The notes under the pieces were generated by a model, which saw nothing but the letters and a program-made list of their open reading frames with translations, was not told where the DNA came from and ran no database searches. The position numbers were made by a program, and so were the translations under genes. Of a DNA stretch of 34,932 bases, positions 18,333-31,308 are shown piece by piece (positions within the stretch are counted from its first letter, which is position 1; each line of letters opens with the position of its first letter). The stretch comes from Parcubacteria group bacterium (GTDB taxonomy: Bacteria; Patescibacteriota; Minisyncoccia; Phycocordibacterales; UBA2135): the NCBI GenBank assembly GCA_016204005.1, contig JACQLS010000034.1, forward strand, positions 1 to 34,932, given 5' to 3'.

Positions 18333-20288
18333 TTAAAGATCGTCAATCTCTTGTAGTGATCGCTCCAGCCATTCGGTTGAATGTACAACCGGAATCTGAA
18401 GCGCTCTTTTGCGATCGAGATCAAGTGTCCCGAGGTGGACCGACTGAGGCGCTTGCTCCCACTTAAAGATGGCTCTGCTAAAGAGCGTCACGAAGCGTTT
18501 CACCCATTCCTTGAGCATGCCGGGCGCATAGCGCGACGCCATCTTGAGCAATTCTTCATCGGTCCAGGTGCTTCGAAGAACACTATATATCTCTTTCGGA
18601 GACATCTTTTCTCCCGCAAAAAGCGCGAAACATGCATCCAACACGGGGAATGGCATGAGGTCGTCTTCGTCCGCTTGGCCGCGAGCAAGCTCGGCTGACG
18701 CTTTTGTCGCGAGAAGTTCCTTTGCGATAGCGATATGATGTCGTTCTCCAATATAGCGGAGAAGCTCGATCACGATCGTCTTCGGCACATTTCCAATGAG
18801 TGAGTAGCCGCCCGAAAGATCCCCTCCTACGGTCGTATAGCCAACGGCCTTTTCCGACATGTTGCTCATCTGGAGGACAAGCCCGCCCGCGCTATTCGCC
18901 CAATTCCACATACGTTCCGCGCGAATGCGCGCTTGTATGTTTTGCTTGGTTAACGCCGTAACCTCCTCTCCGGGCGCAAGCATTGCTTTTGCGGCCTCGC
19001 ATTCGCGCACAAAGGCCTCTTCGATGGATTCTTCCTTAAAGGAGACTCCGAGCTCATCGGCAAGACGAGAGGCGATTGATTTCGTTTCTTCGGAATTGAA
19101 CCGAGTGGGCATGCTGAAGCACCGGATAAAAGAGCGTACGCGGTCTTTGTCTCCCTCGAAACGGCGGAGCGCGTAAAACCACGCAATGATGAGCGAGAGC
19201 GCGGAGTCCTTACCGCCCGACAGTGCAATGCCAATTGTGCGGAACGCGTGTGTTTTGCTGAAATAATCGAGACCCATGATCATCGCCTCGATCAGATCAC
19301 CGAAGAATTGCTCGCGGCTGTTACCGCCTGCGAAATTCGGAAGGAAAAAATTCTTGCTCGTCGGCACTGGATACTTATATGCGGATTGATTGGGATGTGC
19401 GCTCGTAACAACCACCACTTCGGTTGGAGCTGGCGCTTCCGCGCGTGCTCGATATGCCTCACGGTCTCGCCTCCACGTGGTGTTCTCAACACGATGCCGT
19501 GCCGTGCGGTCGAGATCAACAACTTGAGTTGCGATTCCCTCGCGCCATCGAGGTGCATCAAAGAGCATTGTTCCGTTCTGGTTCACGAATCCACCCCCGT
19601 CAAAAACGAGAGCGTCGTTGCCGCCAACCTGGTTCGCATACACAATCGTAACCTGGTTATCTGCCGCACGGGTGGCGATCATTTCGCGACGTGTTTGCAC
19701 GACGCCAATACGAAACGGGGACGCTGAAAGATTCAGTACCAGTTCGGCCCCGGCGAAAGACCGGCGACGCATGGGACCATCGGGAGTCCAGATATCCTCG
19801 CACACTTCGACCGCAAAGACTCCGAACGGGGTCTTGAAGAGCAGGTCTCCAAAAGGCACACCGTTTACTTCTCCCAAAAGCCCGGGCATTCCCGGTGTAA
19901 ACACGCGCCCTTCATAGAAAACTCCGTAGGTAGGAAGCTTCTCCTTCGGGACAATGCCCCATATTTTTCCAGCCGAGACGACGGCCGCCGCGTTGTATGG
20001 CTGTCCATCGTATACGACAACCATACCGACGACAAACACGGTTGGAAATTGGAAACCCCATGTTGCGTTAGCAAACGTCACTAGGGCATCCCATTGGCCG
20101 GAGACAAAGCTTGGCCATTGCACCAAATCTTCGGCGGGGTAACCCCCAATCACTTGTTCTTGGAAAACGCCAACTGTGCATTCTGCATTCGACATTTCGC
20201 GGGCTTTATCAATAAGCGTCTTTGTGTTCGACGTGAAAGCCCCTACGGTCGTGTTTATGGTGCCGATGCCGATTTTGATGAGTCGCAT
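18333..20288 (-). CDS. nadE: Glutamine-dependent NAD+ synthetase (CN_hydrolase + NAD synthase domains)
   Basis: N-terminal nitrilase-like domain (EVCEDIWTPDGP) and ATP-pyrophosphatase IALSGGKDSALSLIIAW; MSNMSEKAVGYTTVGGDLSGGYSLIGNVPKT. Confidence 0.95.
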   Translation of the reverse strand: MRLIKIGIGTINTTVGAFTSNTKTLIDKAREMSNAECTVGVFQEQVIGGYPAEDLVQWPSFVSGQWDALVTFANATWGFQFPTVFVVGMVVVYDGQPYNAAAVVSAGKIWGIVPKEKLPTYGVFYEGRVFTPGMPGLLGEVNGVPFGDLLFKTPFGVFAVEVCEDIWTPDGPMRRRSFAGAELVLNLSASPFRIGVVQTRREMIATRAADNQVTIVYANQVGGNDALVFDGGGFVNQNGTMLFDAPRWREGIATQVVDLDRTARHRVENTTWRRDREAYRARAEAPAPTEVVVVTSAHPNQSAYKYPVPTSKNFFLPNFAGGNSREQFFGDLIEAMIMGLDYFSKTHAFRTIGIALSGGKDSALSLIIAWFYALRRFEGDKDRVRSFIRCFSMPTRFNSEETKSIASRLADELGVSFKEESIEEAFVRECEAAKAMLAPGEEVTALTKQNIQARIRAERMWNWANSAGGLVLQMSNMSEKAVGYTTVGGDLSGGYSLIGNVPKTIVIELLRYIGERHHIAIAKELLATKASAELARGQADEDDLMPFPVLDACFALFAGEKMSPKEIYSVLRSTWTDEELLKMASRYAPGMLKEWVKRFVTLFSRAIFKWEQAPQSVHLGTLDLDRKRALQIPVVHSTEWLERSLQEIDDL

Positions 20289-20324
20289 GGTGTTCCTCTA
20301 GTTGTGGAAGGTGCGTATCTTTAA

Positions 20325-20371
20325 GAGCATCCGATTCGCACCGGAAGGTGCGCATGCGGGTGCTCTATAAG
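20325..20371 (-). promoter_or_regulatory. nadE leader element: TATAG-AGCACCCG...CGGATGCTC stem-loop shared with pncB leader
   Basis: Minus strand TTATAGAGCACCCGCATGCGCACCTTCCGGTGCGAATCGGATGCTCTTAAAG. Confidence 0.5.
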
Positions 20372-20374
20372 AAA

Positions 20375-20396
20375 GGGGAAGCGCTTCAGCTTCCCC
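20375..20396 (-). terminator. Intergenic hairpin/terminator between pncB and nadE
   Basis: GGGGAAGCgcttcaGCTTCCCC with CTTTCTT on minus-strand 3' side. Confidence 0.65.
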
Positions 20397-20416
20397 ATAT
20401 AGAACGAATGAAAAGA

Positions 20417-21715
20417 TCAAACAGTGGGTTGGGTGTCAAAGTCTTGAACACCGAAATCGCCCTTGTATCTCTCGATCTCGCGCTTCGGACCAGTTTCCTT
20501 GCCACGGTTATCGGAAAGTTTTACCGCAGGACGCCCAGCAACTAGAACCAACTTGCAAGCCATTGAGAAAGGTCCGAAGTCCGGTAATGGAGGGACGCAT
20601 CCACGGAAATCATTGCCGAAGAGCGTGCCCCAACCGTACCGATCAATGATCCTACCTCCAAACTCTTGATGCAGACGCGTCATGTCCGAGACATCTAAGC
20701 CGTCTGAAAAGACGCCGACTTTTTCGCGCGGGTCAACACCATGTTTCTTGAACCAGTCTATGTGAAGGTTACCCCCCACTGACGGATCACCAGAGTCCAG
20801 GCGGAAGCCGCGGCTCTCTTGGGCAATCCATGCCGGAGCGTGCTTCAGAAATTCGGGGGTCCTGTAGGTGTCAGCGAGGAATATGCGAAATTGCGGACCG
20901 TATAATTCATGCCAACGAGCAAGAGCTCTGTACTGGGAGTCTCGCCGTTCACCACCAGGACCGGAAAGGGCCGCCAGCGCCATAAAGACTTCATGCGCGA
21001 CTGTTCCGACAGCGGGAATGCCGTAATAAAACGCCATCCAAACATTTGAAGTCCCGACGAATTGCTTGGGCATAGCCTGTATCGCCGAACCAACAGCAAA
21101 CTTCTGCCACTTGAAGCTATGCCGACGACGATGGGAAAAATCACTCCAGAAGAGATTTGGATATCTCGAAAGTATGTCGAACTTTCGATGCAGCTTGCTC
21201 CCTGCCCGCGTCATCGCATTTACCCATTCATCTACTGTTAGACCCTTCATGAGATTCTTGTAATAGAGTTCGGAGACGACGGAGAGGGCAATGGTCTCCC
21301 ACATGGTGACCTCGACCCACTTGCCCGTGAAGGTGAGACGATACTGGTCACCCTCCCTCTTTAATTCGTAGGGCGGAAGCTGGAACCGCTCGAGGAATTG
21401 CAGGTATCTTTCTCCAAAGACATTTTTGCCATCTGCCTGCATGTCGCGGAGAAATTTGATCTCAATGGGCAGATACCGAAGATCGCGCTTGCGATCGAGG
21501 GCGTCATGCAACTCATTTTCTGGAATGACTTTGGCAAGCTTGACCTTTGGATCGCGAATAATGAGTTCAAACGTCACCGGAACATTCCCGTAGCCATTGA
21601 TAAGAATCCATTGACCCATAGTGAATTTATAGAGATCAACATCCAAAAGTGACTCTGGTTTCAGGTAGGGATTGCCATCGGGCTTTGTCTCAAAGTAATC
21701 CAAGCGTGCGTCCAT
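20417..21715 (-). CDS. pncB: Nicotinate phosphoribosyltransferase (ORF opens at 21841; MDARLDYFE start preferred)
   Basis: LLDVDLYKFTMGQWILINGYGNVPVTFELIIRD; HRRRHSFKWQKFAVGSAI; FRLDSGDPSVGGNLHIDWFKKHGVDPREKVGVFSDGLDV. Confidence 0.94.
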   Translation of the reverse strand: MDARLDYFETKPDGNPYLKPESLLDVDLYKFTMGQWILINGYGNVPVTFELIIRDPKVKLAKVIPENELHDALDRKRDLRYLPIEIKFLRDMQADGKNVFGERYLQFLERFQLPPYELKREGDQYRLTFTGKWVEVTMWETIALSVVSELYYKNLMKGLTVDEWVNAMTRAGSKLHRKFDILSRYPNLFWSDFSHRRRHSFKWQKFAVGSAIQAMPKQFVGTSNVWMAFYYGIPAVGTVAHEVFMALAALSGPGGERRDSQYRALARWHELYGPQFRIFLADTYRTPEFLKHAPAWIAQESRGFRLDSGDPSVGGNLHIDWFKKHGVDPREKVGVFSDGLDVSDMTRLHQEFGGRIIDRYGWGTLFGNDFRGCVPPLPDFGPFSMACKLVLVAGRPAVKLSDNRGKETGPKREIERYKGDFGVQDFDTQPTV

Positions 21716-21757
21716 CGCGGCCCCTTTCCTTTTTTGTTGTGTGAAGAACGTGCCTTT

Positions 21758-21827
21758 ACTGTCTCTACCGCAGAGACAGTTGACTGCGCAGAATGTACAA
21801 TAAAAACTGTGCGCAGTCAACTGTCTC
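21758..21827 (-). promoter_or_regulatory. pncB leader: 18-bp perfect inverted repeat overlapping a 9-bp hairpin (mutually exclusive structures)
   Basis: GAGACAGTTGACTGCGCA (21773-21790) / TGCGCAGTCAACTGTCTC (21810-21827); alternative ACTGTCTCT (21758-21766) / AGAGACAGT (21772-21780). Confidence 0.7.
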
Positions 21828-21854
21828 CTTTCTCTATTCAAAGTCCTTCTCTAA

Positions 21855-21888
21855 GGACATCCGACCCATTCGGGTGCCCTATAGAAAA
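21855..21888 (-). promoter_or_regulatory. pncB leader element paralogous to the nadE leader element
   Basis: Minus strand CTATAGGGCACCCGAATGGGTCGGATGTCCTTA; same helix GrGCACCCG/CGGATGyyC. Confidence 0.5.
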
Positions 21889-21908
21889 GTGGAGGTTATG
21901 ACCTCCAC
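21889..21908 (-). terminator. Intergenic hairpin/terminator between pncA and pncB
   Basis: GTGGAGGTtatgACCTCCAC followed on minus strand by TTTTC. Confidence 0.65.
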
Positions 21909-21933: not shown

Positions 21934-22506
21934 TCAAATCGTAGCCGGCTCACGCAACACGTCTTCAACCGTTGCGAACATTGCGCCGATAGCGCGCATC
22001 TCTTCGATAGCGCGCTCGCCATCACCATCCTTGAGGTTGACGGCACGACACGCGTCAGTGAGAAGCGTCACCTTGTGCCCGTGCTCGATCGCCGCCCTCA
22101 CCGTCGAAAGCACGCAATAGTCGGTAGCCAGTCCGCCAACATAGAGATGCTCCGCTTCCGGCCTCATGCCGCCGTCAAAGGCAGAGTAGTCATCCGCATC
22201 TCCAAGCCCCTTGGAGATAACCTGGAATCTCACGTAGCCGTTTGGCAGACGGAGGTCAGGGTGGAATTCGGCACCGCGCGTGCCCTGCACACAGTGTACC
22301 GGCCAAATGCCGCCGAACTCTGCAAAATGCTTTGTCTGGCGCGGGTGCCAGTCACGAGAAGCAAAGATGTCCCAACGATGTCTCACCGCAAACGCAATCA
22401 TGCGGTTAAGCGGCGGAACGACCTCGTGTCCATTGGGGACAGCAAGCGAACCGCCCGGACAGAAATCGTTCTGGACATCAACGAGTATGAGCGCTTTTCC
22501 CTTCAT
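21934..22506 (-). CDS. pncA: Nicotinamidase (isochorismatase-like)
   Basis: ALILVDVQNDFCPGGSLAVPNG; FASRDWHP; GLATDYCVLSTVRAAIEHGHKVTLLTDACRAV (catalytic Cys). Confidence 0.95.
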   Translation of the reverse strand: MKGKALILVDVQNDFCPGGSLAVPNGHEVVPPLNRMIAFAVRHRWDIFASRDWHPRQTKHFAEFGGIWPVHCVQGTRGAEFHPDLRLPNGYVRFQVISKGLGDADDYSAFDGGMRPEAEHLYVGGLATDYCVLSTVRAAIEHGHKVTLLTDACRAVNLKDGDGERAIEEMRAIGAMFATVEDVLREPATI

Positions 22507-22640: not shown

Positions 22641-22669
22641 AGTGTATAAGTTACACTTACCACGTCCAA
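22641..22669 (-). promoter_or_regulatory. pncA promoter with candidate NrtR operator
   Basis: Dyad AGTGTATAAGTTACACT at 22641-22657; minus-strand TTGGAC-N17-TACACT, -10 inside the dyad. Confidence 0.7.
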
Positions 22670-22726: not shown

Positions 22727-23413
22727 CTAGAGGATCTCGATCGTCTTCATTTTTTTCGCCCGAAAAGAATACAGCTCCGCCGGACGGCTTGCCTGTCCCC
22801 TTCTCTCCTTGCCTGTCCCCTTCACGAGCCCAATGGCAAGAATCTTTTTCCTGAAATTACGCTTGTCCAGCTTCTTTCCTAACACAACCTCGTACACACT
22901 CTGGAGCTCGGATAACGTAAACTCACTCGGTAAAAGATTCTGCGCGATGTTCGTATATCCCAACTTTGCGCGAAGCCGTTCAACTGCCGTTTCCAAGATT
23001 TCGCGGTGATCATACGCAAGTGCAGGTGCATCTTTGACAGGGAACCAGGTAATATCCGCATACTCCTCCGTCGTCTTCAAAGAAAGCTTGGTGCTTGGCA
23101 CAAGGGCCGTGTACGCGACTGACACAACACGCCCGAATGGGTCACGGTCGACACGGCCAAACGTGTGGAGTTGTTCCAGATATACATTTCGTACGCCTCC
23201 CTTCTCTCGCAAAATGCGTTCCGCGGCATTATCGACGGACTCATTCGCCTTCACAAGCCCGCCGGGCATTGCCCACTTTCCCGTGTACGGCTCTTTCTTC
23301 ATTTTAATAAGGAGCACCTGGAGCCCGCGGTTTCGTACGGTAAAAAGCGCGACGTCGGTCGCAATCACTGCGTAATCATATTTTTTATACTTGCTTGCTT
23401 GGGGCTTTTTCAT
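22727..23413 (-). CDS. nrtR: NrtR-like transcriptional regulator (Nudix domain + C-terminal winged helix)
   Basis: Nudix fold with degenerate box (GGLVKANESVDNAAERILREKGGV), LEQLHTFGRVDRDPFGRVVSVAYTALV, C-terminal wHTH with RPAELYSF; adjacent to NAD genes. Confidence 0.88.
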   Translation of the reverse strand: MKKPQASKYKKYDYAVIATDVALFTVRNRGLQVLLIKMKKEPYTGKWAMPGGLVKANESVDNAAERILREKGGVRNVYLEQLHTFGRVDRDPFGRVVSVAYTALVPSTKLSLKTTEEYADITWFPVKDAPALAYDHREILETAVERLRAKLGYTNIAQNLLPSEFTLSELQSVYEVVLGKKLDKRNFRKKILAIGLVKGTGKERRGQASRPAELYSFRAKKMKTIEIL

Positions 23414-23966: not shown

Positions 23967-24002
23967 TTAGTGTATTCTATACACTTTATAGGCAGGTGTC
24001 AA
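23967..24002 (-). promoter_or_regulatory. nadM-nrtR promoter with candidate NrtR operator, near-leaderless
   Basis: Dyad AGTGTATTCTATACACT at 23969-23985; minus-strand TTGACA (23997-24002)-N17-TAGAAT (23974-23979), 8 nt before ATG. Confidence 0.75.
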
Positions 24003-29800: not shown

Positions 29801-30619
29801 TCACTTCATCAAAAGGTGCAGTTTGACTTCCGGCCGCGCGAGCCACTGGGGGTATTCACCCATAAGGCGCGCGAAGAGCTCTTCGTCGGAGATGTCATCG
29901 GGCGACGGCGACTCAATGGCGAAGAAGTTCGCATTGTCGACGAACCGCCCGCGCACTCGTTCATCCAAGGAATTCAAGAAACGGAACTGTGACGGACACT
30001 CGACAGGAACCTCCTTCGGCCTGCCCCAAAGTCCCTTTCCGGTCGTCGTCTGCCCAGGCACATAGTCCGCGCCCAGAGCAACGAACTGCCAGAAGATCGG
30101 CTCGTGCGAGGTCGCACGAATCTGTTCAACAGTTTCCGATTCGTCGTACGTCTCACCGTCTGTGACAAACACAACATAGATCGGTGGGCCGCCGTCGGTG
30201 TGCGGAGCACGCCGAGGGCCATCGCTGCCGAAATAGTGCCGCCGTACCGCCCTGATTGCCTGGGCGTACATGGTTCCACCCTCAAGGTCATTCACCTTAA
30301 TGTGCCGCGCAACAAACCCATTGTGGTCGCTTGTCGATACCTCACCAATGTCATGCGCGTTAACGCCGAAGGTGAAGACGTCGACAGCGCCATTGTCATC
30401 GAAACGATGACCGAGCGGCAAAAGACGATCGACGAGACCTTGGATCAATCCTCGCTGATAGAGGCGCTCCATCGAACGGCTGATGTCGAGCACGAGCGCG
30501 ACGCGCGCAACGTGACCGACGAGGCCGTGCCGCTCCAAATGCGGATCGAGCTTCTGAACAAGCCTAAACATTGCGGGATCCTTTTCCGCAAGCACCCTAT
30601 CCTTCTCTGCGAGATTCAT
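29801..30619 (-). CDS. TerF-type von Willebrand factor A domain protein (MNLAEKD start preferred)
   Basis: VARVALVLDISRSMERLYQRGLIQGLVDRLLPLGHRFDDNGAVDVFTFG with DxSxS MIDAS, GGTMYAQAI, FVTDGETYDE. Confidence 0.9.
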   Translation of the reverse strand: MNLAEKDRVLAEKDPAMFRLVQKLDPHLERHGLVGHVARVALVLDISRSMERLYQRGLIQGLVDRLLPLGHRFDDNGAVDVFTFGVNAHDIGEVSTSDHNGFVARHIKVNDLEGGTMYAQAIRAVRRHYFGSDGPRRAPHTDGGPPIYVVFVTDGETYDESETVEQIRATSHEPIFWQFVALGADYVPGQTTTGKGLWGRPKEVPVECPSQFRFLNSLDERVRGRFVDNANFFAIESPSPDDISDEELFARLMGEYPQWLARPEVKLHLLMK

Positions 30620-30699
30620 TTCTGCTCCTTCTCTGGGGGTTGGGGGGTGTGGTGGGGAACGGCCGCATGGCGGTTCCCCTTCCACTTCTTGGTGCCGCC

Positions 30700-31308
30700 T
30701 TAGGCGGCCGGCCGAACAAGGCGAATGAAATTCTCGGTGGTCATGTCCTTGGTGCCGCCGAAGAATGCCGTCGCACTCGAGTTCACGAGCCGAGCACCAG
30801 ACGGATCACGATTGTCGACGGTCGCGATAACGCAGACGTTCTCCTTGGACGCAAGGCCGACGGCCTCGGCGAGCGAGAGCTTCACGTCGTGCGCATTGCC
30901 ATTCTCGTCGGCGACATTGAGCGCCACGTTGCTTTGGCGGAACCGAGCACCTTCGCCCTTCTTGACCGCGCCGTAGTCCCACGCAACGATGTGCACTTCG
31001 TCCCACGGCGTGAGGCTGCCGATCTTGATCCACTCTTCGTTCTTGCCGCCGGCACCCTTGGTGTCACCGACACCGGCATCGCCTGACCGCAAGATATACG
31101 GAAACTTGTCCAAGCTCTGCGTGATCCCTTGGCCGTCATCGGCCTTGCCGGGGTCATTGCCGAAGTAGATGATCTTCGGTGCCCCGCCGCCCTTGGGGAT
31201 AGCGACGGCGGCGATATCGAGGTCGACGCCGGCAAGCCAGGTCATGGTCGCCTGCAGGGTCCGGAACGGCTTGACGGGCGCAGTCGCGCCCTTTTCGGCG
31301 AGGTTCAT
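30700..31308 (-). CDS. terD: TerD family protein
   Basis: WLAGVDLDIAAVAIPKGGG...IIYFGN...DDGQGITQSLDKFP...WDEVHIVAWDYG...VALNVADENG; characteristic TerD layout. Confidence 0.88.
   Translation of the reverse strand: MNLAEKGATAPVKPFRTLQATMTWLAGVDLDIAAVAIPKGGGAPKIIYFGNDPGKADDGQGITQSLDKFPYILRSGDAGVGDTKGAGGKNEEWIKIGSLTPWDEVHIVAWDYGAVKKGEGARFRQSNVALNVADENGNAHDVKLSLAEAVGLASKENVCVIATVDNRDPSGARLVNSSATAFFGGTKDMTTENFIRLVRPAA

What the first reader, a model, noticed from the sequence alone, without database searches (positions are those of the whole stretch)
20325..21888. Shared structured RNA motif in the pncB and nadE leaders
Minus strand: nadE has TATAGAGCACCCG-(23 nt)-CGGATGCTCTTA, pncB has TATAGGGCACCCG-(7 nt)-CGGATGTCCTTA. 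Both form the same 9-bp helix GrGCACCCG/CGGATGyyC, with compensatory or wobble changes at positions 2-3 (A-U/G-C to G-C/G-U) and the same C-A mismatch retained. Both directly follow a terminator-like hairpin with TATAG right after its U-tract. The nadE copy carries an extra hairpin (GCGCACC-ttcc-GGTGCG) in the loop. This could be an undescribed cis-regulatory RNA (ligand or protein binding) or a processing site for NAD genes.
Basis: seen in the sequence. Interest (0 to 1): 0.8.

Follow-up and report, generated by a model that had tools for sequence, protein, structure and literature searches.

The report
Twin-hairpin RNA between bacterial genes
Two matching RNA hairpins in front of NAD-making genes of an ultrasmall bacterium turn out to be copies of a previously unlisted RNA element that sits between neighbouring genes in many of its relatives, so it is probably a general gene-separating or RNA-processing signal rather than a sensor for NAD.

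Summary
In detail: both leaders carry the same hairpin with a compensatory change, and the motif occurs only twice in the genome. It is not a private NAD motif. Relatives show it is one branch of an RNA family in Candidatus Paceibacteria (Parcubacteria): a variable hairpin HP1, (U)CUUUAU, a 12-bp hairpin HP2, UAGAGA, often a GUUCWUU box, then Shine-Dalgarno and start codon. HP2 covariation is strong: in 27 copies 11 of 12 pairs change on both sides, with 84 compensatory cells against 28 in shuffles. No Rfam family matches.

NAD operons of four genomes carry it, but most copies precede small genes of unknown function, often divergent from a TrmB-type regulator and sometimes near the RNase Y gene. 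Twelve other pncB clusters lack it. Copies lie between genes: HP1 mostly begins 7-30 nt after a stop codon. This argues against an NAD riboswitch or an NrtR operator.

Best mechanism, inferred: an intercistronic processing and stabilisation module, cut between two protective hairpins. Main rival: put- or boxA-type antitermination, weakened because the genome with most copies lacks a detectable NusB. RNA end mapping is needed.

The parts
20375..20396 (-). HP1 of the nadE copy: GGGGAAGC-tgaagc-GCTTCCCC, 20 nt after the pncB stop codon
20367..20374 (-). Linker TTTCTTAT between HP1 and HP2 of the nadE copy; contains the invariant TAT
20324..20366 (-). HP2 of the nadE copy: AGAGCA-C-CCG ... CGG-A-TGCTCT
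20337..20353 (-). Extra apical hairpin GCGCACC-ttcc-GGTGCG in the nadE loop; absent in the sister species
20301..20323 (-). 3' flank TAAAGA plus box CACCTTCCACAAC, followed by Shine-Dalgarno and the nadE start at 20288
21889..21908 (-). HP1 of the pncB copy: GTGGAGGT-cata-ACCTCCAC, about 22 nt after the pncA stop codon; nearly the same stem in G001 and G003
21881..21888 (-). Linker TTTTCTAT of the pncB copy
21854..21880 (-). HP2 of the pncB copy: AGGGCA-C-CCG-AATGGGT-CGG-A-TGTCCT
21834..21853 (-). 3' flank TAGAGA plus weak box GGACTTTGAATAG
21781..21819 (-). Inverted repeat TGACTGCGCA...TGCGCAGTCA overlapping a TTGACT-17-TACATT promoter-like site for pncB; lies downstream of HP2, so mRNA from it would lack HP1/HP2
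   Evidence: similar in G001 and G003; promoter by eye
20417..21715 (-). pncB, nicotinate phosphoribosyltransferase (PF04095, PF17767)
18333..20288 (-). nadE, NAD synthetase with CN_hydrolase domain
21934..22506 (-). pncA-like nicotinamidase (isochorismatase fold), upstream gene of the operon
22727..23413 (-). NrtR-like regulator (NUDIX + NrtR_WHD)
22641..22657 (-). Palindrome AGTGTAACTTATACACT in the pncA promoter region, probable NrtR operator
   Evidence: assignment inferred
23969..23985 (-). Palindrome AGTGTATAGAATACACT in the nadM/nrtR promoter region, probable NrtR operator
   Evidence: assignment inferred

Best explanation
The two sites are copies of one intercistronic RNA module, HP1-(U)CUUUAU-HP2-UAGAGA-(box)-SD. 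Shown: HP2 is a conserved helix with compensatory evolution; HP1 abuts it in nearly all copies; the module lies between co-directional genes, shortly after one stop codon and before the next start. Inferred: the polycistronic transcript is cut in or next to the AU-rich stretch between the hairpins, by RNase Y or another endonuclease. HP1 then protects the 3' end of the upstream mRNA from 3' exonucleases, and HP2 shields the 5' end of the downstream mRNA, for example from RNase J. Each gene of the operon can thus have its own mRNA stability and dosage. The near-invariant UAU/UA flanking HP2 and the downstream box would be recognition features for the cutting enzyme or a helper protein.
For: Covariation: 11/12 HP2 pairs change on both sides; 95.4% of cells paired against 53% when slid by one column. 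Placement: 21 of 25 copies have an upstream ORF ending 7-89 nt before HP1, 15 of them within 30 nt; in 16 copies the assigned ATG lies 28-56 nt past the end of HP2, pncB copies being longer. No HP1-HP2 unit was seen by eye in the promoter regions next to TrmB genes. HP1 was present in new hits not used to build any model (L115, L122, L125, L100; L097 weaker), against about 9% at random positions. RNase Y was found in 10/10 tested genomes; RNase J is in the window. In five loci rny lies about 0.6-7 kb from the elements. Stem-loops that protect both ends of cut products are described for cip-cel (PMC10311766), and a stabilising 5' hairpin after RNase Y cleavage for cggR-gapA (PMC11780869).
Against: No transcript ends are available, and co-transcription is inferred from spacing. 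In cip-cel the sequences flanking the cut are not conserved, whereas here the UAU and UAGAGA flanks are; simple end protection does not need that. The linker may be partly paired in a lower stem (three pairs formed in 78 of 81 cells), which would leave little single-stranded RNA. The pncB genes also have a promoter-like site downstream of HP2. The closeness to rny may be plain synteny.
Confidence: 0.38

Rival explanations
1. Processive antitermination element: two adjacent hairpins (put-like) or a hairpin followed by boxA (rrn/nut-like) modify RNA polymerase so that it reads through later terminator-like hairpins in the operon.
For: Many copies have GUUCUUUGA-type boxes 4-10 nt after UAGAGA, much like boxA as I remember it. 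rRNA leaders of the relatives G003 and G131 have a hairpin followed by YYCUUUGACA (by eye). putRNA is about 70 nt with two stem-loops (PMC9378689). rrn leaders are ordered boxB-boxA-boxC (PMC10250234).
Against: G009, listed as 100% complete, has seven R3 matches at E up to 0.05 but no detectable NusB, and its box has drifted to GUUCAUUCACAAC. Elements lie between genes rather than just after promoters. G246 and G362 have no clear box. The pncB and nadE boxes of the window are weak.
Confidence: 0.22
2. Translation-control leader: a protein or the ribosome binds HP2 and the box just upstream of the Shine-Dalgarno and tunes initiation of the downstream gene.
For: HP2 and box lie close to SD-ATG in most copies. 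A similar CAUUCACAAC box also precedes the SD of pncA, which has no HP1-HP2 unit.
Against: Does not explain the constant HP1. The box is not clearly enriched upstream of genes in general (4.0% against 2.6%). HP2 does not obviously occlude the SD.
Confidence: 0.2
3. HP1 is simply the intrinsic terminator of the upstream gene and HP2 the leader hairpin of an independently transcribed downstream gene; their adjacency reflects compact genomes.
For: HP1 mostly begins 7-30 nt after a stop codon and is followed by a U-rich stretch.
Against: The tail is mostly only CUUUAU. The HP1-HP2 spacing is nearly constant. HP2 pairs begin immediately after UAU, so UAU cannot be the -10 box of a transcript that contains all of HP2, and little room is left for a promoter upstream of HP1. 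The CTCCACTTTTCTA end of HP1 is element-specific in G000, G001 and G003.
Confidence: 0.12
4. Metabolite riboswitch or NAD-pathway-specific aptamer.
For: NAD operons of G000, G001, G003 and G414 contain copies.
Against: Most copies are not near NAD genes. 12 of 15 pncB regions found in the order lack a hit. No conserved internal pocket. No match to any Rfam family.
Confidence: 0.05
5. DNA operator for NrtR or another dimeric regulator, read as an inverted repeat.
For: An NrtR-like gene lies in the cluster.
Against: Loop length varies from 3 to 23 nt, many pairs are G.U wobbles, orientation to the downstream gene is fixed, and better operator candidates exist at the nadM and pncA promoters.
Confidence: 0.03

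Closest known systems
Selective RNA processing and stabilisation, cip-cel operon of Ruminiclostridium cellulolyticum (PMC10311766)
   Same: Intergenic stem-loops, in some regions on both sides of a cut, protect both products and guide an endonuclease, proposed to be RNase Y
   Different: There the sequences flanking the cuts are not conserved; here UAU, UAGAGA and a box are conserved across families. Cleavage is not shown here
cggR-gapA and glnRA processing in Bacillus subtilis (PMC11780869)
   Same: Cleavage after the first gene with a stabilising hairpin at the new 5' end
   Different: No conserved twin-hairpin family is described in the passages read
HK022 putRNA (PMC9378689)
   Same: About 70 nt, two stem-loops side by side, acts in cis
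   Different: Phage early leader with a triplex and bulges; here intercistronic, repeated within operons, and no such features found
rrn/nut antitermination leaders (boxB-boxA; PMC10250234)
   Same: Hairpin followed by a CUUU-type box
   Different: Between genes, box variable or missing, and NusB not found in one copy-rich genome
NAD+-I and NAD+-II riboswitches (PMC7749635, PMC10702441)
   Same: Some copies precede NAD genes
   Different: No Rfam match; most copies precede other genes

Membership tests
Conserved structured RNA (any) | Compensatory base changes above background | tested here: met
   84 cells with double changes against 28.3 +/- 4.7 shuffled (0/500); 11/12 pairs; slides of 1-3 columns fall to 26-54% paired. 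Alignment ends were chosen by hand
Any Rfam 15 family | Match above gathering score, or a credible sub-threshold match | tested here: not met
   only tRNAs and weak, implausible matches
NAD+-I / NAD+-II riboswitch | Match to the family model | tested here: not met
   No match in cmscan of the Rfam library; that both classes have models there is assumed
NAD+-I / NAD+-II riboswitch | Predominant association with NAD genes | tested here: not met
   Most copies precede other genes; 12 of 15 pncB regions lack it
boxA-dependent antitermination leader | boxA-like sequence | tested here: inconclusive
   GUUCUUUGA in several copies, drifted or absent in others
boxA-dependent antitermination leader | NusB encoded in the genome | tested here: not met
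   NusB in 6 of 8 genomes; not found in G009, which has the most copies; G000 also negative but only 82% complete
Intercistronic processing module | Lies between co-transcribed genes with hairpins on both sides of a possible cut | tested here: inconclusive
   Position and hairpins met; co-transcription inferred only
Intercistronic processing module | Endonucleolytic cleavage between the hairpins | not testable with these tools
   No RNA-seq or end mapping available
NrtR operator | Fixed-spacing DNA palindrome | tested here: not met
   Loop 3-23 nt and frequent G.U pairs

The most novel reading that the evidence does not exclude
A previously undescribed, lineage-wide intercistronic RNA device of Patescibacteria: a twin hairpin with a near-invariant UAU/UA junction, recognised by a dedicated factor. 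It would act as modular punctuation in operons, possibly tied to an RNase Y locus and TrmB-type regulators, and would have been recruited into NAD salvage operons.
Probability: 0.4. Interest if true: 0.8.

Novelty: new variant of a known kind. Interest (0 to 1): 0.62.

Why it matters
Little is known about how ultrasmall Patescibacteria control gene expression. A recurring, covariation-supported RNA element that separates genes within operons gives a concrete, testable handle on RNA processing or elongation control in these organisms. It also makes a set of small genes of unknown function recognisable by their shared leader.

Tried and rejected
NAD-specific riboswitch: rejected after most homologues proved unrelated to NAD. 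NrtR operator: rejected on variable loop length and G.U pairs. -10 promoter reading of TATAG/TTTATA: rejected because HP2 pairs start directly after UAU. Leader-peptide reading of the AUG in some HP2 loops: the AUG is not conserved (G001, G009, G362 loops). HP3 (AGAGA/UCUUU) and a pseudoknot between the HP2 loop and the box: seen in some copies only. boxA as sole explanation: weakened by missing NusB in G009. General leader box: no clear enrichment upstream of genes overall. Weak hits L024, L032-L036 and L099 show no clear HP1 next to the linker and were treated as chance; L023 was not used. Two searches of open PMC papers for Parcubacteria RNA motifs listed nothing relevant.

Full report
OBSERVATION. 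The window is one contig of a 0.63-Mb assembly, 82% complete. Each is HP1, a short U-rich linker, and HP2 (GrGCA-C-CCG ... CGG-A-TGyyC). The motif occurs only twice in the assembly. Rfam gives no credible match.

NAD-OPERON RELATIVES. The sister species G001 has the element before both pncB and nadE. G003, another genus of the family, has it before a PP2C gene and before pncB, and by eye a degenerate form before nadE, in an operon that also holds an NrtR-like gene, an isochorismatase-type gene and a kinase-like gene. In G003 the HP2 stem reads CCCAAA...TTTGG instead of CCCGA...TCGG, a compensatory change. G414, from a different family, has it before an ADP-ribosylglycohydrolase gene (PF03747) and before another nadE.

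THE WIDER FAMILY. Covariance models built step by step (R1 from 5 sequences, R2 from 8, R3 from 27) found further copies. R2 over 397 genomes of the order gave 11 genomes at E below 0.001. R3 over 333 genomes of the phylum gave five genomes at E up to 0.01, of which one (G534, L099) lacks HP1 and is probably chance. Named records carrying the commonest form include Candidatus Kaiserbacteria, Taylorbacteria, Lloydbacteria and Elulimicrobium. Consensus: HP1, (U)CUUUAU, HP2 (for example AAGUUUCUGAA..UUCGGAAACUU), UAGAGA, often GUUCWUU a few nt later, then Shine-Dalgarno and start. A descriptor scan of 18 loci found 34 structures against 5.7 per shuffled set; I judge about 24 of the 34 genuine by their flanks, the rest look like chance.

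STATISTICS. On 27 aligned copies HP2 has 95.4% of cells paired, 11 of 12 pairs with double changes and 84 compensatory cells (28.3 +/- 4.7 in shuffles, 0/500 as high); sliding the partner by one column drops pairing to 53-54%. Relatedness inflates shuffle tests, but the slide control keeps relatedness. I chose the alignment ends by hand, from hits of earlier models and of the hairpin scan, so membership was partly selected for pairing; HP1, which no model contains, is the more independent check for model hits. New hits not used for any model (L115, L122, L125, L100) show HP1 next to the linker, and L097 a weaker one, while a 7-bp hairpin occurs at about 9% of random positions. Columns next to the stem, A8 U9 and U54 A55, are invariant or nearly so; three outer pairs are formed in 78 of 81 cells but vary little, so a lower stem with a 2x2 internal loop is likely but not proven. 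The C.A mismatch of the window copies sits at columns 16/47, where other copies have C-G, U-A or U-G; it is tolerated, not a fixed feature.

POSITION. Of 25 copies, 21 have an ORF of at least 40 codons ending 7-89 nt upstream of HP1, 15 of them within 30 nt. In 16 copies the next start with a Shine-Dalgarno follows 28-56 nt past the end of HP2; pncB copies are longer because a promoter-like site and inverted repeat intervene. In the TrmB-divergent promoter regions that I read, the promoter-proximal gene shows no HP1-HP2 unit (by eye). So the element is intercistronic by position; co-transcription itself is inferred.

NEIGHBOURHOOD. Several non-NAD copies lie in small arrays of short genes of unknown function, divergent from TrmB-type regulators (Pfam TrmB in L060 twice, L042 and L022, and just below cut-off in L044; weak NCBIfam TrmB match in L100; L115 by resemblance only). 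In five loci the RNase Y gene lies about 0.6-7 kb away. One further copy precedes a nucleoside-diphosphate kinase gene (L125).

NAD ASSOCIATION. Fifteen of 397 genomes have a close pncB. R3 finds the element near pncB in G000, G001 and G003 of that set, and in G414 outside it, but in none of the other 12 regions (11 fetched loci plus G037). Some of these regions are cut by contig ends, and G074 has the element elsewhere in its genome. G037 has two adjacent hairpins before pncB that do not match R3. The NAD link is therefore real but not defining.

MECHANISM. A cut between HP1 and HP2, with the hairpins protecting both products, explains the intercistronic position, the constant HP1 and the free drift of stem sequence. 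It resembles selective RNA processing in cip-cel (PMC10311766) and the stabilising hairpin of cggR-gapA (PMC11780869). RNase Y is present in all ten genomes tested and RNase J in the window. It does not by itself explain the conserved UAU, UAGAGA and box. Antitermination would explain the box: rRNA leaders of G003 and G131 show a hairpin plus a boxA-like sequence (by eye), and putRNA is a pair of stem-loops. But G009, with the most copies, has no detectable NusB. No transcript data exist here, so the mechanism stays inferred.

NOT AN OPERATOR. Palindromes AGTGTA-N5-TACACT at the nadM/nrtR and pncA promoters, repeated in G001 and partly in G003, are better NrtR candidates (assignment inferred).

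VERDICT. Real, wider than claimed, not NAD-specific, not in Rfam 15, mechanism open. The literature check covered open PMC papers only, so prior description elsewhere cannot be excluded.

Noticed in passing
window 23969-23985 and 22641-22657 (minus): AGTGTA-N5-TACACT palindromes at the nadM/nrtR and pncA promoters, repeated in the sister species; probable NrtR operators.
   Followed up: partly
window 21781-21819 (minus): Long inverted repeat around a promoter-like site of pncB; similar in G001 and G003.
   Followed up: partly
L060, L042, L022, L044, L100, L115: TrmB-type regulators divergent from small arrays of short unknown genes that carry the element; five element loci lie near rny.
   Followed up: partly
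L009:1500-12000; L062:1200-10700: NAD salvage operons that also hold PP2C, kinase-like, VWA-like (by resemblance) and ADP-ribosylglycohydrolase genes.
   Followed up: partly
L021 and L027, about 80-20 nt upstream of HP1: Shared GCGATTCTCTTCCGCGTGTAGATGAGACAGGTT sequence with a possible covarying pseudoknot (CGAGGC/GCCTCG versus CGAGAC/GTCTCG); no Rfam match.
   Followed up: no
L073, upstream of pncB of G037: Two adjacent long hairpins before pncB that resemble the arrangement but do not match the model.
   Followed up: no
window 29801-31308 (minus): A VWA-like and a TerD-like gene side by side, by resemblance only.
   Followed up: no
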